From contig JAQGOL010000035.1 in NCBI GenBank assembly GCA_028293625.1, forward strand, positions 186,001-250,000: a DNA stretch of 64,000 bases, read 5' to 3'. Under the pieces are notes generated by a model, which was not told where the DNA came from, searched no databases, and was given only the letters and a program-made list of their open reading frames with translations. The position numbers were made by a program, and so were the translations under genes. This DNA is from Chthoniobacteraceae bacterium (GTDB lineage: Bacteria > Verrucomicrobiota > Verrucomicrobiia > Chthoniobacterales > Chthoniobacteraceae). This document shows positions 52,352 through 61,453 of this stretch, one piece after another (within the stretch, counting starts at the first letter, position 1; every line of letters starts with the position of its first letter).

Positions 52352-52681
52352 TTAGACCGGTTCGCCGGCCGGGATTTCGACAGGAACCGGCGGGGCGGGC
52401 GGCTGGTTGGCGCCGCCCTGGGGAACCTGAACGACTTGGAAATTTTGCACCGTTTGGGCAAGAAGCTGTGCCAGGCGCACAACGCCTGCAGGGGTCATCG
52501 CGATACGCGTGTGAATGGGCATCAGCGAAGTGCCGGGACGATCCGGAACAATGCCGGAAGTGAAATCGAGGTAAACTTCCTCCGCGCCGACATTGACTAG
52601 GGCGTGGTTTGCGTAACGCGCCGTGAAGTCTTCGTAACGGACCTGGATGGAATGTGAGGGGTTGGGGCTTGGATTCGACAT
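52352..52681 (-). CDS. DUF3467 protein
   Basis: 109 residues. Start ATG 52681 is chosen because T-G-A-G-G-A lies just upstream as a ribosome site; an ATG four codons earlier sits inside that site. The body has Y-A-N-H-A-L-V-N, E-E-V-Y-L-D-F and R-I-A-M-T-P-A-G-V-V-R-L-A-Q-L-L, as in DUF3467 proteins, followed by a proline-rich tail P-P-A-P-P-V-P-V. Function unknown. It is on the same strand as the GreA-like gene, 137 nt downstream of it, and may be cotranscribed. Confidence 0.8.
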   Translation of the reverse strand: MSNPSPNPSHSIQVRYEDFTARYANHALVNVGAEEVYLDFTSGIVPDRPGTSLMPIHTRIAMTPAGVVRLAQLLAQTVQNFQVVQVPQGGANQPPAPPVPVEIPAGEPV

Positions 52682-52817
52682 GACGATCCTCATTTAACAG
52701 CGCAAGAGTAGTTTGCAATGGCGAAGCCACGCAGATGTCCGGAGGAAGGCTTTGAAGCAAAGGTTCTTTCCTTGTCGCATCCATCGGGGGGGAAAGGTGA
52801 GATAACAAACGGAATGG

Positions 52818-53297
52818 TCAGCAAACCGAGACGATCCGGAAGTGATTGCGCGAACCGCCTATACCCATTTCCAGCTGCTCATTTTCTTTCTTGCCCAATA
52901 ACTGGGATCCCAGAGGCGAGTGTGGCGTTATGACAAGGACTTCCTTGTTCTCATGCACGATTTCAGTCCCGCCGGCGCGCGGGCCGATGAAATACCAGGA
53001 GTGTTCTCCTTTGCTTTCCAGTTCGACCAATGCGCTTAGGCCGATGATATCACCGGGTCCGAATGTTTGAAGTGTCAGCGCTTGAAAACTCTGTCGGGCG
53101 TGCTCTGTCTCGGCTGCCTGACGTGATTGTCCATGCGCCAGATAGGAAGCTTCCAACGCACGGGTGTCATATTTGTTCTCGGCCTTGTTTTGTTCGTGAG
53201 TCGCCTCGGCATGCGCGGCGCGGGCCGAAAGGGAGTATAACTCGAGTTCAGCTTCAAGCTGTGCGAGGATTTTTTTAACGAGATCGGTTTTATTCAC
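52818..53297 (-). CDS. GreA/GreB-like transcription elongation factor homologue
   Basis: About 159 residues from GTG 53297 (V-N-K-T-D-L-V-K-K). Residues 1-80 form a coiled coil with acidic tip residues (K-A-E-N-K-Y-D-T-R-A-L-E), and residues about 85-155 a C-terminal FKBP-like domain ending V-I-T-P-H-S-P-L-G-S-Q-L-L-G-K-K, a clear GreA signature. GreA releases backtracked RNA polymerase; this shorter form may instead be a Rnk- or Gfh-like regulator. The start is uncertain: a TTG at 53348 adds 17 residues. Divergent, across 303 nt, from the flotillin operon. Confidence 0.75.
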   Translation of the reverse strand: MNKTDLVKKILAQLEAELELYSLSARAAHAEATHEQNKAENKYDTRALEASYLAHGQSRQAAETEHARQSFQALTLQTFGPGDIIGLSALVELESKGEHSWYFIGPRAGGTEIVHENKEVLVITPHSPLGSQLLGKKENEQLEMGIGGSRNHFRIVSVC

Positions 53298-53600
53298 GGC
53301 AAGGAGAAGAGAGGCGGTGCGCAGCACGGCCGCGTGTTCATACAGCAATTTTTGGAGCTGGCAATTCCACGATTATCCTCAAGGACGCAGCCTGCTGGCC
53401 CGTTCGCTGATTCCTGCATGGGAATAGGGAATCCGGCTTTGCGCTTTGATCGCGGGAACGCGACAATCGACCAATCATTGAGCGATTATTGCTGCAAGGA
53501 GTTAGGCCGTATGGTTCCCTCGCTTTGTTCGATGAAACCGGCAGCTATTTACGGTTCAACCTGGCTCAGCTCTTTCGCGGTGAAAGCACGGAGGTAAGCG
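53298..53600. promoter_or_regulatory. 303-nt divergent intergenic region
   Basis: Between the GreA-like gene and the OB-fold/flotillin/ATPase operon. It should hold promoters for both. At its right edge the GGAGGT at 53590-53595, five bases from the ATG at 53601, is one of the few textbook ribosome sites in the window. No repeat, hairpin or extra gene was recognised. Confidence 0.6.
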
Positions 53601-54254
53601 ATGCACGAAGTCTTTCTGGAGGCGATCACTTTCGTCAATCTGCCGTTTACCGTCCTGCTCGGCCTGATTGTCCTTTACTGGGTCATGGTCGTCATTGGGG
53701 CATTGGATTCCACATTTGGCAGTGAGTTCGATGGGCATCTGGAAAGCGGCACTGAATCCTCGTCGGACCACGATGCCAATCATGACGGCTGGATCTCCGG
53801 CTTGGCGCATTTTATCAATTTAGGCGATGTCCCCTTGATGGTCGTCATGAGCGTCATCACGCTTAGCCTCTGGACGGGCTCATTGATTGCCAACCGCTAT
53901 GTAACCGGTCACCAAACGCTGCTTGCCCTGGCGTGCCTGATCCCAAATCTACTGATTAGTATTGTCGTGACCCGCTATATCACGCTGCCGCTAAAACCGC
54001 TTTTCAGAATGCTTCGACGCAATGAAGATGACGCGGTGCCGATAGTAGGGCAGCCGTGCCGGATCCTGACAAGCCAGGTCACCGGCACGTTTGGCCAGGC
54101 GGAAATCACCACTCAAGGCGCTCCCTTGCTAATCAATGTGCGGACCCTGGATGGCAGCTGTCTGCCCAAAGGCGCCATCGCGATTGTTGTTCGTGAAGAC
54201 CGGGAGCGAGACTTCTACTTTGTAACCGCCTTTCCGGATCCGCAGATGTTCTAA
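53601..54254 (+). CDS. YqiJ-like membrane protein with OB-fold (NfeD-type) C-terminal domain
   Basis: 217 residues: a first membrane helix near 12-34, an acidic loop (E-S-S-S-D-H-D-A-N-H-D), two further helices at about 78-96 and 104-125, then a soluble domain from about 140 (V-G-Q-P-C-R-I-L-T-S, G-T-F-G-Q-A-E-I-T-T) that resembles the OB fold of YqiJ/NfeD proteins. In many bacteria these stand next to a flotillin, and the two interact in membrane microdomains. Here the flotillin gene follows after 13 nt. Preceded by a strong GGAGGT ribosome site. Confidence 0.82.
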   Translation: MHEVFLEAITFVNLPFTVLLGLIVLYWVMVVIGALDSTFGSEFDGHLESGTESSSDHDANHDGWISGLAHFINLGDVPLMVVMSVITLSLWTGSLIANRYVTGHQTLLALACLIPNLLISIVVTRYITLPLKPLFRMLRRNEDDAVPIVGQPCRILTSQVTGTFGQAEITTQGAPLLINVRTLDGSCLPKGAIAIVVREDRERDFYFVTAFPDPQMF

Positions 54255-54267
54255 CCTATATCCAACC

Positions 54268-56358
54268 ATGGCCAATCCTCACGCCTTCCTCGCCTTCATC
54301 GACGCGCTCTTCGGAGTAGGCGCAACGCTGCTGCTTTTAATTCTTATAGGCGGCGCTTTTAGTGTTCTCACCTGCTTTCGCAAAGTAGAGCAGGGCCGGG
54401 CAATTATCCGCAACGGACTTCGAGGCACCAAAGTCTCCTTCTCAGGTCTGACCGTCTTTCCGATCATCGACAAAGCCGAGTATATGGATATCTCGGTCAA
54501 ACGAGTCGAGATCGACCGGAACGGCGCCAACGGCTTGATCTGCATGGATAACATGCGTGCCGACATCAAAGTGGCCTTCTTTGTCAGGGTAAACCAAACT
54601 CCGGAGGCCGTGCTCAAAGTTGCCCAATCCATCGGATGCGAACGCGCTTCAAGTCAGCATGCCATCGTTGAGCTCTTCGACGCGAAGCTCTCCGAGGGAC
54701 TTAAAACCGTGGGCCGCCAGTTTCAGTTTGTCGACCTTTACAATTCCCGGGACAAACTCAAGGAAGGCATTTTGCAAAGTATCGGCACCGACCTCAACGG
54801 GTTTGTGCTCGAGGATGTGGCCATTGACTATCTTGAGCAAACACCGGTCGCGTTGCTTAATCACGATAATATCCTCGATGCGGAGGGCATTAAAAAAATC
54901 ATCGAGCTAACGGCTGCGCAGAAAATTCTCGCCAATCAAATCGATCGTGAACGGGAGAAAACCATCACCAAGCAGAACGTCGAAGCAACTGAAACGATCC
55001 TCGCTCTCAACCGGCAGCTCGCCGAAGCCGAACAGAAACAGAAGCGCGAAATTTCAGGAATTGTCGCGCGCGAGGAAGCGGAATCAAAAAAGGTCCAATC
55101 CGAACAACGGCTTCGGGCCGAGCAGGCGCGAATTGCCGTCGACGAGGAACTGCAGGTGGCCGAGGAAAACAAGAACCGCCAGATCATTGTGGCCCAGCGC
55201 AACAAGGAACGGACCGATGGGGTTGAAAAGGAGCGCGTTGAAAAGGATCGCGCGCTTGAGCAGATTGAACGCGAACGGCTCGTTGCGCTGGCCGAGATCG
55301 CCAAGGAAAAAGCGGTTGAGAGCGAACGGAAGCTTATTCAGAATGTCATCCGCGAGCGCCTGGAGGTGGAGAAGACTGTCGTTATTGAGCAGCAACGCAT
55401 TAAAGACACCGAAGCCTTTGCAACGGCCGATCGGGAGAAAAAGGTCGCGGTGACCGCGGCGGAAAAGCAGGCGGAGTCCGAGTTGATCCGCGACATCAAG
55501 GCGGCGGAAGCGGCAAAAAAATCGGCGGAGCTGCGGGCCGATCAGGAGATGGTCACCGCTGTGCGCCGCGCAGACGGCGAGAAACAGGCGGCCGAACGCC
55601 ATGCCCAGCAACGGATTATTACCGCCGACGCCGAGCTTGCCGCCGCTTCCAAAGAGTCGGCGGCCAAAAAAGTGCTGGCTGAAGCGGTAACGGCGGAAGC
55701 GGCGGCCACCGGCCTGGCTGATGCCCAGGTGCAGGAAGCAAAAGCCGGTGCCTTGCAAAAACAGGGTGCCGCCGAGGCCGAAGTCATGCAACTCAAGGCG
55801 AGTGCGGAAGCGGAAGGAATCACGCGCAAAGCCGAAGCGATGAAGCTCTTTGATGAGGTGGGCAAGGAACACGAGGAGTTTAAGCTGCGTTTGGCCAAAG
55901 AGCGCGATGTGGAGTTGGCGCATATCCAGGCGCAGGCCAATATTGCGAGCAGCCAGGCGGAGGTTTTGGGCGAGGCGCTCAAGAGCGCCAAAATTGACAT
56001 TGTTGGCGGAGACGGAGCGTTCTTTGACCGGATCACTGGAGCGATCTCCAGCGGTAAAGCGCTTGAGCGCTTAATACGGAACAGTCCGACATTAAGCGAT
56101 GTAAAGGAGACGTTTTTCAACGCGGATCCCGAGTATTTTCACGCGCAGGTTCGCACTTACGTGGATCGGTTCGGACTAAGCAGCGAGGACGTTAAGAATC
56201 TTAGTATCGCCACCGCTCTTACCCAGATGCTGACCCTAACCGACGATGCCAAAACAAAAGGGCTTTTAACCGGGCTGCTTGGCCAGGCTAAACGTCTCGG
56301 TCTTGATGGCATTGCCCTTTCCAGCCTGCATCAAAATGGCGTTGCCCGTTCCGCTTAA
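54268..56358 (+). CDS. Flotillin (SPFH/band 7; YqiK-like)
   Basis: 696 residues. N-terminal membrane anchor near 14-35 and an SPFH domain to about residue 230 (V-F-P-I-I-D-K-A-E-Y-M-D-I-S-V). The centre, about 225-560, is a long Ala/Glu/Lys-rich coiled coil with flotillin-style A-E-A repeats. The C-terminal about 100 residues include I-V-G-G-D-G-A-F-F-D-R-I, the YqiK ending. Flotillins scaffold detergent-resistant membrane patches. It follows the OB-fold gene by 13 nt and overlaps the ATPase gene by 23 nt, so all three probably form one coupled unit. Confidence 0.93.
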   Translation: MANPHAFLAFIDALFGVGATLLLLILIGGAFSVLTCFRKVEQGRAIIRNGLRGTKVSFSGLTVFPIIDKAEYMDISVKRVEIDRNGANGLICMDNMRADIKVAFFVRVNQTPEAVLKVAQSIGCERASSQHAIVELFDAKLSEGLKTVGRQFQFVDLYNSRDKLKEGILQSIGTDLNGFVLEDVAIDYLEQTPVALLNHDNILDAEGIKKIIELTAAQKILANQIDREREKTITKQNVEATETILALNRQLAEAEQKQKREISGIVAREEAESKKVQSEQRLRAEQARIAVDEELQVAEENKNRQIIVAQRNKERTDGVEKERVEKDRALEQIERERLVALAEIAKEKAVESERKLIQNVIRERLEVEKTVVIEQQRIKDTEAFATADREKKVAVTAAEKQAESELIRDIKAAEAAKKSAELRADQEMVTAVRRADGEKQAAERHAQQRIITADAELAAASKESAAKKVLAEAVTAEAAATGLADAQVQEAKAGALQKQGAAEAEVMQLKASAEAEGITRKAEAMKLFDEVGKEHEEFKLRLAKERDVELAHIQAQANIASSQAEVLGEALKSAKIDIVGGDGAFFDRITGAISSGKALERLIRNSPTLSDVKETFFNADPEYFHAQVRTYVDRFGLSSEDVKNLSIATALTQMLTLTDDAKTKGLLTGLLGQAKRLGLDGIALSSLHQNGVARSA

Positions 56359-59300
56359 CTTCGAGGCAGACCCGCTGCTCGATCAAGGCACCTACGAGAT
56401 TCTGCGCGGCCGCCTTGTCGCGCACGGTGCGCAATTGCGTGAGCGGTTGGAGAGGTTAAATGCCGCCCGCCAAAGCGTGTTCGGTTCCATTCCCACGACA
56501 CTGCTTGCCACCGAGCGGGTGACGACCAAAAACAACTGCACGCCCCGCGATATCATCCCCATCGGCGAAAGCCGGTTTTTGCTCGGCTATAATGTGCATG
56601 TCGGGCTCCGCAGCGAAATAAAGCTCGAAGACGTTTTCGCCCTTTATGAATGCCAGGGACGCGCATTTAGGGAACTGCCACTTGAAGCCATCGCCGATCC
56701 CACTTTTCAGTCCGACTTCAAGAGCCTGTATAAGTATTACAAAGAAACAATCTTCACCAAGTTTTCGATTCTCGAGCCGCATCTCTTCATGGAGTTCCGG
56801 ATCGGCAAGAGCATCACCGATATCAAGACGTTCAAGTGGCTCTGCCAGGATGGTCTGCTTGCTTACCAGGGAAACCGATTCGATCACGAATACCAGTTCC
56901 CGCCCGAGCACGAGTTTAGCTGGATCCGGACCCACCGCGAACTACACCGGTCCGGGCTTCACCCTCATATCTCCATTGAGGACCGGGTCTTTGTAGAATG
57001 CGTGGGCGGCGATCTTACAATTAAGGTTGAAGATAACACCGCGACCGGTCAGGGGATTTATTCGGAGAATGTTGATCACCGGGATCAAACTCTCGATGAC
57101 GCCGAGATTTTTTACGCATCGGTTGGAAATCTTGTGCTCCTCAAGATCCGGCCATACCAGGAAAAGGCATTTCGTTATTTTGTCTTCAATGAAAAGCTCA
57201 AGGAAGCCCGGCGCATTGATGCGATAGCGGACTCCTGCGTGCTGCTTCCTGACGGTCACGGGATCATTTTCTCCCACGGTTATTATCTGCAAAGCGGCGA
57301 GTTCAAGATTTTCGATACGGCTTTGGAAGGGATGGTTTTCTACAAGCGCATCGCTTCGCCCAACGGCGAGGACACACTCTTTACATTCTACCATCGGGAG
57401 AGTGGCGATTACATTCTGCTCTCTTACAATCTTATCGCCCGAGCGGTCGAGACACCGATTATCTGCAGCGGTTTTTCTCTTTTCGAGAACGGCGAGATGG
57501 CGCTTTTCCGAAGCGATCTCCAACCGCAGAAACATCATGTGGTGCAGGTCTGGCAAACTCCTTATGTCGGCCCGGCGTGGCAGCCGGAAGTGCAGCCGAC
57601 AAGCTATCTGTATAAAATTGGAAATCCGGCGCTGGTCGGCGCGATGGCTGAATGCCAGGGCATTCTCACCCTGCTCAGTAAGAACGACAGTTATAGCGGT
57701 CTTTATCTCGATCTTGTAAAGGAATCAGGTGCGATTCTTGACGCCTATTTCTGGCTGGACCGCGAGGATGCCTGCAATCTGCAGGAACCGCTTGTTGAGA
57801 TCAGGCAGGCAGCCACAGCGGCGCTCGCGGAATTCGACAAGGTTGAGAATATCAAGCGGAGAACCGCGGCCGAAGCGCAGCGAGTCCTTGAACAGGCCAG
57901 TGCTATTCTCGATTTGCTTCCCACGCAAAGCTTCAAACAAATCGGCGCATTTGTTGCCCGGCTCGCCGAGTTGCGCGGCATCCGTGGAAGCCTGATTTCG
58001 CTTAAGGAACTGCGATATATCGATTTGCCACGAGTTGGCGAGACCGAGCAGCAGGTTGTCGTGGCGGCCGGGCAACTGGCTGAACGCACAGTGGCGTTTC
58101 TTCTTAAACCCGAAGCGCTGGACCCTCTCCGTGATCAAGTCCGCGCGCTCAAGGACGCCGTTGCTGCACTAACCAAAGTGACTGTTGCCCAAGCGCTCGA
58201 GGAGCAGATGGGCGTGGCGGCTCGGGAGCTCGATCTTCTGATTGAAACCGTTAGCAACCTTAAAATCCAGGATGCCACTGAGACTACCCGAATCATCGAG
58301 AACGTTTCGGCAATCTATGCCGTGCTCAACCAGGCGCGCGCAGGGCTCAAGCAGAAGGTTCGTGAACTGCGCGGAAACGAAGCGATCGCCGAGTTTGGCG
58401 CCCAGTCGCGTTTGCTTGACCAGGGACTGGCTAACTTTCTGGATCTTTGTGCCACACCCGAAAAGTGCGATGAATACCTGAATCGGCTACTGGTTCAGGT
58501 GGAAGAACTTGAAGCACGCTTTTCCGATTTTGACGAGTTTGTAGTAGAGCTCTCCGAAAAGCGCACTTTATTGGCGAGCGCATTTGAATCGCGCAAGATT
58601 GAGTTGATTGAAGTGCGCAATCGCAAGAGCCATGGCTTGCTCACCGCGGCGGAACGCATTCTCAAGGCGATCAAACATCGCGCCGATCACCTTGAAAGCC
58701 TCGACGCGATCAATGCCTACTTTGCGTCCGATCTCATGGTCGAAAAAGTGCGCGACCAAATCGCGCAGCTGATCGCTTTGAGCGATAGCGTCAAGGCCGA
58801 CGACCTTGGCAGCCGGCTCAAAACAATCCGCGAGGATGCCGGCCGCCAACTCAAGGATCGGCAGGAACTTTTTGCCGGTGGCGCCAACTGCATCCAGCTT
58901 GGCCGTCATCAGTTTCTCGTTAATACCCAGGAACTCGACCTTACCGTCGTCCAACGCGGCGGGGAGATGAATTTGCACCTGACCGGGACCAGCTTTTTTG
59001 AGCCGATCATCGACCCGGCTTTCCTTGCCACCCGGCCGGTTTGGGAACTGGAAGTCGTTTCTGAATCTTCAGAAGTTTACCGGGCGGAGTATCTGGCCTT
59101 TCGGATATTGGAAAATACCAAGCCGGATGAAGCGGTTTCCTGGAGCGAAGAAACACGGCTTGCCAGGGTGACGGAGTTTATGAGCCCGCGGTATGCGGAG
59201 GGTTATGTGAAAGGGGTCCATGATGGCGACGCCGCGAAGATCCTTGGCACATTGCTTGAAATGCACGCGAGCCTCGGGCTTTTGCGCTACTCAAGCCAGG

Positions 59301-61453
59301 CCCGCGCTTGCGCGGCACTCTTTTGGCAGCATTTTCCCGAAGGTGAACGCCGCTCTCTTCTTACTGCCAAACTGCGCGGTTACGCGACGATGAAACAGCT
59401 CTTTCCCGGAGCCGAGCTTCAATCTTCCTATATCGGGGAGTTACAAACGCTGCTTGGTGAATGGACAGGCCGTACCGCAATTTTTGATGCGAGTTGCCTT
59501 ACTCAAGCCGCCGAGTACCTCTATTTTCAAATCAAACGCGGCGGCAATTTCGTTGCCAGCCCGCAGGCAGCACGATTGCTTCATGCCTTCCGCCAGCATC
59601 TGAGCGTGAGAGGATTTGAGGATGCGTTCCAAGCCATTCGTGCTTCGGTGGAAGCGGATCTCGCCAGCTTGTTTGTCATCGTTCGCGATTGGCTTGGCGC
59701 TTTTATTCGCAATGCCGGGGACGACGGCGCGCTGGAGTTTCTGGATGAAGCTGGTTGGCTGCTTTTGCGCGGCACCACCTCGGAGCTGGACATCATCGAC
59801 GCTTCGGTAGCGCGCGAGGTTGAGGGGCTGCTGGGCAGTCATCCCTTGCTGCAGGGCGGGCGTCTCGTGGTGCATTACATTCGCTTCATGGAAAAGCTGC
59901 GGACCCATACGCTCACGGTCGTCCCGGCCTTTGAATGCTGTCAGCGACTTAAAAAGCAGCATATTGAAGAAGCTCGCGTGCGGCTTCAGCTTGAGAACTT
60001 CAAGCCTAAGGTTCTTACTTCATTTGTTCGCAATCGCCTGATTGACAGCGCCTATCTGGGGCTCATCGGCGATAATCTGGCCAAACAGATAGGGACCGCC
60101 GGCGATACCAAGCGGACTGATCGGATGGGGTTGCTTCTGCTGGTCTCGCCTCCCGGCTATGGAAAGACGACGCTGATGGAATACCTGGCAAGCCGCCTGG
60201 GTATTGTTTTCGTTAAAATCAACGGTCCCGCCATCGGCCATCGCGTGACCTCACTGGATCCGGCTGAAGCGCCCAATGCTTCCGCACGGGAAGAGCTCGC
60301 GAAACTCAATCTTGCCTTTGAGATGGGTGACAATGTCCTGGTTTGCCTTGATGACATCCAACATCTCAATCCGGAGTTATTGCAGAAATTCATCTCCCTC
60401 TGCGATGGCTCCCGGCGGATTGAAGGCGTCCATGGCGGGAAACCGCGCACCTACGATTTCAGAGGCAAAAAAGTAATCGTTGTGATGGCTGGCAACCCTT
60501 ACACCGAGAGCGGCGAGAAGTTCCAGATTCCAGACATGCTGGCCAACCGTGCCGATACCTATAATCTGGGGGACGTCGCGGGGAGCCATGCGGAGGCTTT
60601 CAAATCGAGTTACCTGGAGAACGCGGCGGCTTCCAACCCGGCTTTGGGGCGCGTTGCCGGTCGCAGCCGCAAGGATCTATTGACTTTAATTCAGCTGGCC
60701 GAGCTTGGGCCGCGGGACGGGCTTGCTTTTGAAGGAACCTATTCGCCGGAGGAGCTTGGCGAATTCGTGAAGGTCATGCGGATGATGCTGCGGTTGCGTG
60801 ATGTTGTCCTGCGCGTCAACGAAGAATATATCCGCTCGGCTGCCCAAGCGGATGCCTATAGGACCGAGCCGGCTTTCAAGCTTCAAGGCTCCTATCGCAA
60901 TATGAACCGGCTTGCCGAGAAAGTCGCCCCGGTCATGAATGCGAGCGAACTTGAAGCCCTCATTCAGGAGCACTATCGAAATGAGGCGCAAACGTTGACC
61001 AAAGGCGCGGAAGCCAATTTGCTCAAGCTCCGGGAACTTACCGGTGCCCTTACTCCGGAGGAAGCGGTACGCTGGGAAACGATCTGTAAGACTTTCCGTA
61101 AAAACCAGCTGTTTCAAGGCGGCGACGAACGGGATCCGGTATCGCAGGTTGTCCGTCAACTCTCAGCCTGCTTTGATGGGATTGATTCCATCAAGGAAGT
61201 TCTTTCAGCCGGTTTCCGTGATCGGCTCAGCCCGCACGTTCCATCAGTGACTCTAATCATTGCGCCTCCTTCGGGCATGCCCGTCGCCGCCCGGGATGTT
61301 CCAAGCGGGAACGAGAATTTCAGTGCCGGAATCCGCGAAGTGCAGATTGATCAGGAAACGCTGGCGGAGATTTGGAAAGTAATTGAAGAGCGGCGAACGG
61401 CCGGCCTGCCCGCACAGGTATGCCGTTCATTGGATCTATCTTCCGGGAAGTAG
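56336..61453 (+). CDS. Giant AAA+ ATPase (DNA-repair-ATPase / DUF3686-like)
   Basis: A 1705-residue cytoplasmic protein without signal or membrane helix. Residues about 20-450 form a beta-rich region I associate with DUF3686; 450-850 is mainly helical/coiled coil; 860-1250 is a further large helical region; an AAA+ domain spans about 1260-1450: G1274-Y-G-K-T1278 (Walker A, K1277), D1339-D1340 in C-L-D-D-I (Walker B) and sensor-1-like N1387 in M-A-G-N-P-Y. The Walker B reads D-D rather than D-E. Related proteins are often named 'DNA repair ATPase', without experimental support that I know of. Start at ATG 56336 lies inside the flotillin gene, implying translational coupling. Confidence 0.9.
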   Translation: MALPVPLNFEADPLLDQGTYEILRGRLVAHGAQLRERLERLNAARQSVFGSIPTTLLATERVTTKNNCTPRDIIPIGESRFLLGYNVHVGLRSEIKLEDVFALYECQGRAFRELPLEAIADPTFQSDFKSLYKYYKETIFTKFSILEPHLFMEFRIGKSITDIKTFKWLCQDGLLAYQGNRFDHEYQFPPEHEFSWIRTHRELHRSGLHPHISIEDRVFVECVGGDLTIKVEDNTATGQGIYSENVDHRDQTLDDAEIFYASVGNLVLLKIRPYQEKAFRYFVFNEKLKEARRIDAIADSCVLLPDGHGIIFSHGYYLQSGEFKIFDTALEGMVFYKRIASPNGEDTLFTFYHRESGDYILLSYNLIARAVETPIICSGFSLFENGEMALFRSDLQPQKHHVVQVWQTPYVGPAWQPEVQPTSYLYKIGNPALVGAMAECQGILTLLSKNDSYSGLYLDLVKESGAILDAYFWLDREDACNLQEPLVEIRQAATAALAEFDKVENIKRRTAAEAQRVLEQASAILDLLPTQSFKQIGAFVARLAELRGIRGSLISLKELRYIDLPRVGETEQQVVVAAGQLAERTVAFLLKPEALDPLRDQVRALKDAVAALTKVTVAQALEEQMGVAARELDLLIETVSNLKIQDATETTRIIENVSAIYAVLNQARAGLKQKVRELRGNEAIAEFGAQSRLLDQGLANFLDLCATPEKCDEYLNRLLVQVEELEARFSDFDEFVVELSEKRTLLASAFESRKIELIEVRNRKSHGLLTAAERILKAIKHRADHLESLDAINAYFASDLMVEKVRDQIAQLIALSDSVKADDLGSRLKTIREDAGRQLKDRQELFAGGANCIQLGRHQFLVNTQELDLTVVQRGGEMNLHLTGTSFFEPIIDPAFLATRPVWELEVVSESSEVYRAEYLAFRILENTKPDEAVSWSEETRLARVTEFMSPRYAEGYVKGVHDGDAAKILGTLLEMHASLGLLRYSSQARACAALFWQHFPEGERRSLLTAKLRGYATMKQLFPGAELQSSYIGELQTLLGEWTGRTAIFDASCLTQAAEYLYFQIKRGGNFVASPQAARLLHAFRQHLSVRGFEDAFQAIRASVEADLASLFVIVRDWLGAFIRNAGDDGALEFLDEAGWLLLRGTTSELDIIDASVAREVEGLLGSHPLLQGGRLVVHYIRFMEKLRTHTLTVVPAFECCQRLKKQHIEEARVRLQLENFKPKVLTSFVRNRLIDSAYLGLIGDNLAKQIGTAGDTKRTDRMGLLLLVSPPGYGKTTLMEYLASRLGIVFVKINGPAIGHRVTSLDPAEAPNASAREELAKLNLAFEMGDNVLVCLDDIQHLNPELLQKFISLCDGSRRIEGVHGGKPRTYDFRGKKVIVVMAGNPYTESGEKFQIPDMLANRADTYNLGDVAGSHAEAFKSSYLENAAASNPALGRVAGRSRKDLLTLIQLAELGPRDGLAFEGTYSPEELGEFVKVMRMMLRLRDVVLRVNEEYIRSAAQADAYRTEPAFKLQGSYRNMNRLAEKVAPVMNASELEALIQEHYRNEAQTLTKGAEANLLKLRELTGALTPEEAVRWETICKTFRKNQLFQGGDERDPVSQVVRQLSACFDGIDSIKEVLSAGFRDRLSPHVPSVTLIIAPPSGMPVAARDVPSGNENFSAGIREVQIDQETLAEIWKVIEERRTAGLPAQVCRSLDLSSGK

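What the first reader, a model, noticed from the sequence alone, without database searches (positions are those of the whole stretch)
52352..61453. OB-fold membrane protein, flotillin and giant AAA+ ATPase in one coupled operon, divergent from GreA-like and DUF3467 genes
Seen: three genes on one strand with 13-nt spacing then a 23-nt overlap; one of the best ribosome sites in the window at its head; the ATPase has 1705 residues with an intact Walker A. Known: YqiJ/NfeD-type proteins work with flotillins in membrane microdomains. Inference: the ATPase is recruited to, or remodels, a flotillin scaffold, and the GreA-like protein ties it to transcription stress. I know of no described function for such a set; it is my best candidate for an undescribed system.
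Basis: partly seen in the sequence, partly recalled or inferred. Interest (0 to 1): 0.78.

Follow-up and report, generated by a model that had tools for sequence, protein, structure and literature searches.

The report
Flotillin–giant ATPase membrane operon
This is a conserved three-gene bacterial operon (a small membrane anchor, a flotillin scaffold and a giant ATP-driven remodelling protein), already noticed by others as a branch of the PspA membrane-stress machinery; new here is evidence that the scaffold carries a special end piece only when the ATPase partner is present, and that the two genes proposed as extra partners are bystanders.

Summary
A YqiJ-type membrane protein, a YqiK-type flotillin and a 1705-residue DUF3686/AAA+ ATPase form one operon with the stated 13-nt gap and 23-nt overlap. 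The core set is widely conserved: among ATPase loci with enough upstream DNA, flotillin is present in 65/69 and YqiJ in 62/63. It occurs in Verrucomicrobiota, Planctomycetota, Bacteroidota, Actinomycetota, Deinococcota and Gammaproteobacteria. The GreA-like and DUF3467 genes are not part of it (GreA-like 1/61, the window itself; DUF3467 2/61).

The set is not undescribed. Ravi et al. 2024 (PMC11237479) report this operon, with or without CesT/Tir–PspA, and propose sub-membrane remodelling. The function remains experimentally unproven.

New here: (i) a C-terminal flotillin module found in 72/72 ATPase-paired flotillins and 0/12 unpaired ones, a candidate docking site; (ii) the predicted ATPase fold is nearest to MoxR types (CbbQ, NorQ), with catalytic residues invariant in 77 homologues; (iii) PspA genes co-occur with the ATPase across 338 Verrucomicrobiota genomes, in about half of those cases elsewhere in the genome; the window genome has one 280 kb away.

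Best explanation: an ATP-driven remodeller anchored on a flotillin scaffold, working with PspA in membrane stress.

The parts
53601..54254 (+). YqiJ/DUF1449-type membrane protein with C-terminal OB-fold-like part (NfeD-like by homology), 217 aa
   Evidence: Pfam YqiJ_N above cut-off; BLASTP to E. coli YqiJ E 2e-6; YqiJ in 62/63 ATPase loci
53590..53594 (+). Shine-Dalgarno GGAGG of the operon's first gene
   Evidence: sequence
54268..56358 (+). flotillin/YqiK-type SPFH protein, 696 aa, N-terminal hydrophobic segment, SPFH domain, long coiled coil
   Evidence: tblastn to E. coli YqiK 28.6% over 416 aa, E 3e-34; alignment A2
55801..56067 (+). 'HEEF...VGG' C-terminal module of the flotillin (residues about 512-600), specific to ATPase-paired flotillins
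   Evidence: profile hits 72/72 paired, 0/12 unpaired
56068..56337 (+). variable terminal tail of the flotillin (about 601-690), conserved in Bacteroidota, Verrucomicrobiota, Planctomycetota and Actinomycetota members, not detected in Gammaproteobacteria or Deinococcota
56336..61453 (+). DUF3686/AAA+ ATPase, 1705 aa, overlapping the flotillin gene by 23 nt
   Evidence: Pfam DUF3686 588 bits
56498..57556 (+). predicted WD40-like beta-propeller of the ATPase (residues about 55-407)
   Evidence: AlphaFold2 model; best PDB matches are WD40 propellers, Z 9.9, rmsd 6.3, 227 aligned
57770..58870 (+). long helical/coiled-coil region of the ATPase (about 479-845), includes DUF7902
   Evidence: AlphaFold2 model; Pfam DUF7902 at 593-677
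60020..61040 (+). AAA+ module (about 1229-1568): Walker A 1271-1279, Walker B DD 1339-1340, sensor 1 N1387, Arg finger R1405, sensor 2 R1521
   Evidence: invariant in 77 homologues; fold nearest MoxR type CbbQ/NorQ, Z 15-16
52818..53348 (-). GreA-like protein, divergent neighbour, judged NOT part of the system
   Evidence: near the triad in 1/61 loci only, the window; independent in relatives
52352..52693 (-). DUF3467 protein, divergent neighbour, judged NOT part of the system
   Evidence: 2/61 loci (window and L014; also L013, which has less upstream DNA): both others are near relatives with the gene 4-4.7 kb downstream of the ATPase

Best explanation
The operon encodes a membrane-anchored ATP-driven remodelling machine. 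The YqiJ-type protein and the flotillin assemble at the inner face of the cytoplasmic membrane (inferred from known YqiJ-YqiK/NfeD-flotillin pairs). The flotillin's C-terminal HEEF-VGG module docks the giant ATPase through its beta-propeller or coiled coil (docking inferred; co-occurrence of module and ATPase shown). The ATPase, probably a ring-forming AAA+ of MoxR-like fold with complete catalytic residues (fold predicted, residues shown), uses ATP to extract or disassemble subunits of membrane-bound assemblies. The most likely clients are the flotillin scaffold itself and PspA/ESCRT-III-like carpets (inferred from PspA in cis or in trans). The physiological role is maintenance or repair of the membrane under envelope stress (inferred). 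It is a member of the PspA-flotillin-AAA+ systems described by Ravi et al. 2024, in the 'abbreviated' form with PspA elsewhere in the genome.
For: Triad conserved: flotillin 65/69, YqiJ 62/63, same strand and order. PspA upstream on the same strand in 38/61 and CesT/Tir in 32/61 of the same loci. Near-obligate flotillin-ATPase pair: 30/31 versus 0 in the other 307 of 338 genomes, 5/5 versus 0/52 in relatives, 12/12 in PLSDB; pairwise distances of flotillin and ATPase correlate r=0.92, of either with PspA only 0.69-0.74. C-terminal module 72/72 versus 0/12. AAA+ motifs invariant in 77 homologues; MoxR-like fold; propeller plus coiled coil, matching the architecture in Ravi et al.. PspA co-occurrence in 338 genomes: 22/31 ATPase-positive versus 24/307 negative, Fisher 4e-15; by genus 12/17 versus 10/155 (hits at E<1e-6), p=3e-9. 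In relatives 5/5 versus 15/52; inside genus g5 3/3 versus 0/6. The window genome has a PspA at G000:C39:526568-527269 behind a 151-aa protein of CesT-like size. Plasmid pQBR103 carries YjfI-PspA and the triad in one same-strand stretch.
Against: No paper on a DUF3686 protein was found, so there is no biochemistry to lean on. PspA is not obligate: 9 of 31 ATPase-positive genomes showed none at E<=1e-3, though at most 8 candidates per genome were scored. The stand-alone PspA family first seen only with the ATPase also occurs in 9 ATPase-negative relatives. The 'CesT-like' label of the 151-aa protein rests on size and position; it has no Pfam hit. A MoxR-like fold is not a Vps4-like one, so the ESCRT analogy is functional only. 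Shared ancestry, genome size or habitat could drive part of the co-occurrence.
Confidence: 0.6

Rival explanations
1. The ATPase is a MoxR-type assembly chaperone that matures or activates a membrane protein complex held by the flotillin, as NorQ and CbbQ do for their enzymes; PspA is a downstream safeguard and not a client.
For: Closest folds are CbbQ and NorQ, Z 15.3-16.4; a hairpin before sensor 1 is present in the model; PspA evolves less tightly with the triad (r 0.69-0.74 versus 0.92) and is missing in some ATPase genomes.
Against: No obvious VWA partner and no particular metalloenzyme recurs near the triad; the recurring neighbours are PspA and CesT/Tir.
Confidence: 0.22
2. A DNA repair ATPase, as its database name says, with the flotillin merely co-transcribed.
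For: Pfam and RefSeq names ('ATPase involved in DNA repair', 'DNA repair ATPase'). A mutant of an unpaired YqiK-type flotillin in Shewanella has more spontaneous resistant mutants and peroxide sensitivity (PMC1468410).
Against: No DNA-repair gene stood out among the recurrent neighbours; near-obligate membrane-protein partners; no paper found that tests it; the Shewanella phenotype was attributed to iron and oxidative stress.
Confidence: 0.06
3. A phage or plasmid defence module that happens to use membrane proteins.
For: Patchy distribution (31/338 genomes) and presence on plasmids such as pQBR103.
Against: PADLOC gives only weak P-loop matches (E 0.003 and 0.008); neighbours are membrane-stress genes.
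Confidence: 0.06
4. Five-gene unit, with GreA-like and DUF3467 proteins coupling it to transcription stress.
For: Divergent adjacency in this genome.
Against: GreA-like near the triad in 1/61 loci (the window), DUF3467 in 2/61; GreA-like in 34/57 relatives irrespective of the triad, not beside it in any examined.
Confidence: 0.03

Closest known systems
PspA-CesT/Tir-YqiJ-flotillin-AAA+ operons and their abbreviated forms (Ravi et al. 2024, PMC11237479)
   Same: Same YqiJ/YuaF-type protein, band-7/flotillin protein, and AAA+ ATPase with beta-propeller and coiled coil; abbreviated forms without PspA in cis are mentioned there as widespread.
   Different: This locus lacks PspA and CesT/Tir in cis; a PspA lies 280 kb away on the same contig. 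The flotillin module, the MoxR-like fold and the co-occurrence statistics are not in the passages read.
E. coli yqiJ-yqiK / B. subtilis yuaF-yuaG (NfeD2-SPFH2 operons, PMC2636767)
   Same: First two genes homologous to yqiJ-yqiK, same order.
   Different: No ATPase; E. coli YqiK lacks the HEEF-VGG module.
P. aeruginosa bacABCDEF operon (PMC10948618)
   Same: Six-gene operon starting with YjfI/DUF2170 and PspA, putative sigma54 site, linked to biofilm; its authors compare it with a six-gene operon of Ravi et al.
   Different: Whether bacE encodes a DUF3686 ATPase was not verified here (sequence not held).
MoxR AAA+ ATPases CbbQ and NorQ
   Same: Nearest solved folds of the AAA+ module.
   Different: Sequence identity only 14-16%; no VWA partner seen; much larger protein with propeller and coiled coil; Walker B is DD.
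Vps4-ESCRT-III
   Same: AAA+ enzyme genetically linked to a Snf7/PspA-family protein.
   Different: AAA+ fold ranks with MoxR, dynein and Clp types rather than classical AAA; the tight linkage is to flotillin.

Membership tests
PspA-flotillin-AAA+ operon (Ravi et al. 2024) | TM + band-7/SPFH + coiled coil + flotillin protein | tested here: met
   alignment with E. coli YqiK, E 3e-34
PspA-flotillin-AAA+ operon (Ravi et al. 2024) | YqiJ/YuaF 3-TM protein in the operon | tested here: met
   Pfam YqiJ_N, E. coli YqiJ E 2e-6
PspA-flotillin-AAA+ operon (Ravi et al. 2024) | AAA+ ATPase with N-terminal beta-propeller and coiled coil | tested here: met
   models and fold searches
PspA-flotillin-AAA+ operon (Ravi et al. 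2024), full form | CesT/Tir-PspA dyad in cis (full form only; the abbreviated form does not require it) | tested here: not met
   absent from the window locus; PspA in trans
SPFH2/flotillin family | SPFH domain similarity to YqiK plus an NfeD2-type neighbour | tested here: met
   no Pfam Band_7 hit, presumably because divergent
MoxR AAA+ family | AAA+ fold of MoxR type | tested here: inconclusive
   top VIA-align hits are CbbQ and NorQ, Z 15.3-16.4, against 13.9 or less for dynein and Clp; sequence search gives only short P-loop-region matches to p97, Rix7 and RuvB
MoxR AAA+ family | VWA-domain partner encoded nearby | tested here: inconclusive
   no recurrent neighbour looked like one; not searched with a VWA profile
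DNA repair ATPase | role or partners in DNA repair | not testable with these tools
   name only; no recurrent DNA-repair neighbour stood out
Known anti-phage defence system | PADLOC model match over most of a protein | tested here: not met
   only about 30-residue P-loop matches

The most novel reading that the evidence does not exclude
A bacterial flotillin scaffold acts as the membrane receptor of a dedicated MoxR-like giant AAA+ enzyme, bound through the flotillin's C-terminal module, and this enzyme drives turnover of PspA/ESCRT-III-like polymers: a bacterial answer to how PspA assemblies are taken apart by ATP, built independently of Vps4.
Probability: 0.25. Interest if true: 0.8.

Novelty: new member of a known kind. 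Interest (0 to 1): 0.42.

Why it matters
PspA and Vipp1 are bacterial ESCRT-III relatives, and Ravi et al. state that it is unknown how PspA homologues without an associated AAA ATPase regulate their assembly. A flotillin-anchored AAA+ enzyme that co-occurs with PspA, including PspA encoded elsewhere in the genome, is a candidate for that missing activity. It also gives bacterial flotillins, whose function is unsettled, a definite enzymatic partner and a short C-terminal module to mutate. The system is present in tractable organisms such as P. fluorescens SBW25 carrying pQBR103, and Hymenobacter.

Tried and rejected
GreA-like/DUF3467 as partners: rejected. An exclusive trans-acting PspA family (A3): looked exclusive in the phylum sample (9/9 ATPase-positive), but a wider check found it in 9 ATPase-negative relatives, so only enrichment is claimed. 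Flotillin terminal tail (596-690) as the universal mark of pairing: rejected, not detected in Gammaproteobacteria and Deinococcota; the module at 512-600 is universal instead. Defence system: PADLOC gave no real match. Window-type PspA as marker: absent from the four other ATPase-positive relatives in a protein search, but PF04012 found divergent PspA in all of them. GC content shows no sign of recent import (0.53-0.60 throughout). Solved-structure profile search with the flotillin alignment: no hit. Literature search for DUF3686: no paper. L041, L048, L058 and L071 lack a detected flotillin upstream of the ATPase; not resolved further.
Full report
What is there. The window (G000:C39:186001-250000; a Verrucomicrobiota genome whose nearest named relatives in the search are Chthoniobacter and Chthoniobacteraceae) contains, at 53601-61453 on the + strand, a YqiJ-type membrane protein (217 aa), a flotillin (696 aa) and a 1705-aa ATPase. 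Spacing is 13 nt, then a 23-nt overlap; GGAGG lies 6 nt before the first ATG. Pfam identifies YqiJ_N, DUF3686, DUF7902 and AAA; the flotillin has no Pfam hit but matches E. coli YqiK (28.6% over 416 aa, E 3e-34) and aligns with it through the SPFH domain and coiled coil. On the other strand lie DUF3467 (52352-52693) and a GreA-like protein (52818-53348).

Conservation. An alignment of four ATPases brought in 80 loci from GTDB genomes, mostly Bacteroidota (many Hymenobacter), Verrucomicrobiota and Planctomycetota. Counting only loci with enough upstream DNA (the window included), flotillin is present in 65/69, YqiJ in 62/63, PspA in 38/61 and CesT/Tir in 32/61. GreA-like is in 1/61 (the window). 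DUF3467 is in 2/61 (the window and L014); L013, with less upstream DNA, also has it. Both others are near relatives with the gene 4-4.7 kb downstream of the ATPase. In PLSDB records, 12 contain the ATPase and these are exactly the 12 best flotillin records; 43 further flotillin records have no ATPase match. They add Streptomyces, Nonomuraea, Deinococcus, Pseudomonas (pQBR103), Proteus, Halomonas, Vibrio and Photobacterium. On pQBR103 the same-strand stretch reads YjfI, PspA, rhomboid protease, DUF2491, DUF350, DUF1190, glutathionylspermidine synthase, a YqiJ-like protein, flotillin, ATPase.

Flotillin and ATPase are a near-obligate pair. In 57 relatives, 5 have both and 52 neither. In 338 Verrucomicrobiota genomes, the long flotillin is in 30 genomes, all ATPase-positive; 31 genomes have the ATPase. 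Five other genomes carry a shorter YqiK-type flotillin without ATPase, beside YqiJ and usually a PspA-family gene. Pairwise distances of flotillin and ATPase correlate at 0.92, of either with in-cis PspA at 0.69-0.74 (shared species history contributes).

A pairing-specific module. Comparing paired with unpaired flotillins shows a C-terminal module (window residues about 512-600, HEEF...VGG) hit by a profile in 72/72 paired flotillins across phyla and in 0/12 unpaired ones, E. coli YqiK included. A further tail (about 601-690) is present in most but not detected in Gammaproteobacteria or Deinococcota. I infer that the module docks the ATPase; this is not shown. Many of the 72 sequences come from the same lineages, and the profile was built from five paired sequences.

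The ATPase. Walker A, Walker B (DDIQH), sensor 1 (GNPY), the Arg-finger position (NRAD) and sensor 2 (QGSYR) have their key residues invariant in 77 homologues. The AAA+ model (mean pLDDT 83) is nearest to MoxR-type CbbQ and NorQ (Z 15.3-16.4, rmsd 3.5-4.2, 227-252 aligned), ahead of dynein and Clp (13.9 or less). The N-terminal model (pLDDT 83.7) has a beta-propeller (WD40 matches, best Z 9.9, rmsd 6.3), then a long helical region. This is the architecture Ravi et al. give.

PspA. The window locus has no PspA in cis. The genome has one PspA (234 aa; G000:C39:526568-527269) behind a 151-aa protein of CesT-like size without Pfam hit, 280 kb away. In 338 genomes, PspA is in 22/31 ATPase-positive and 24/307 ATPase-negative genomes (Fisher 4e-15); at genus level 12/17 against 10/155 (3e-9). 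By the contig positions, about ten of the 22 have PspA within about 10 kb of the triad and the rest have it elsewhere. In relatives it is 5/5 against 15/52; within genus g5 3/3 against 0/6, in g9 1/1 against 0/4, in g1 1/1 against 1/3, which together have a chance probability of 1/840 (arithmetic). One PspA family seemed exclusive to ATPase genomes but is not. So PspA is associated, partly in trans, and not obligatory. Genome size or habitat remains a possible confounder.

The divergent neighbours. GreA-like orthologues are in 34/57 relatives; in all four other triad-bearing relatives they lie on other contigs, and no triad gene or DUF3467 lies within 1.5 kb of the 19 examined. They are bystanders.

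Mechanism and status. Shown: operon, conservation, near-obligate pairing, module/ATPase co-occurrence, intact catalytic residues, PspA co-occurrence. Predicted: MoxR-like AAA+ fold, propeller, coiled coil. Inferred: assembly at the membrane, docking through the module, ATP-driven remodelling of flotillin or PspA assemblies in envelope stress. The rival that it matures a membrane complex like NorQ or CbbQ is the strongest alternative.

Prior knowledge. Ravi et al. 2024 (PMC11237479) describe this gene set, with and without PspA-CesT/Tir, and propose chaperone-like membrane remodelling. PMC2636767 describes NfeD-SPFH operons including yqiJ-yqiK. PMC10948618 studies the P. aeruginosa bac operon that begins with YjfI and PspA; whether it contains the DUF3686 ATPase was not verified. 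No paper mentioning DUF3686 is in the library. The finding is therefore a new member of a known kind with unproven function and some new, testable detail.

Noticed in passing
L045:9518-9949 and 16 other loci: In Hymenobacter versions a DUF559 endonuclease-like gene often sits between the flotillin and the ATPase (17 loci).
   Followed up: partly
L036:4264-5055 (-); L213:2577-3362 (-): A divergent HTH/LexA-family regulator lies at the head of the CesT-PspA-YqiJ-flotillin-ATPase operon in about 30 loci, a candidate regulator of the system.
   Followed up: no
L209 (pQBR103, NC_009444.1:84458-105296): Plasmid pQBR103 of P. fluorescens SBW25 carries the polyamine-linked PspA genes and the flotillin-ATPase triad in one same-strand stretch.
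   Followed up: partly
G000:C39:526568-528685 (L011): The window genome's PspA is preceded by a 151-aa protein without Pfam hit and a protein with an N-terminal hydrophobic segment; relatives G020, G024 and G030 have a related PspA.
   Followed up: partly
L206 (G243) and L207/L208 (G317): In one Verrucomicrobiota genus the ATPase gene is not next to YqiJ and flotillin (in G317 they are on another contig; in G243 no flotillin was found) and is preceded by unrelated small genes.
   Followed up: partly
L220:4182-6680: In Martelella sp. AD-3 an unpaired flotillin gene follows a gene annotated as bacteriorhodopsin.
   Followed up: no
RefSeq product names, e.g. in L209, L211, L213, L218: DUF3686 ATPases are named 'DNA repair ATPase' in RefSeq; nothing found here supports that name.
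   Followed up: partly
L201, L202, L203, L205: Verrucomicrobiota YqiJ-YqiK operons without ATPase have conserved genes of about 170-230 aa upstream, one of them PspA-like.
   Followed up: no
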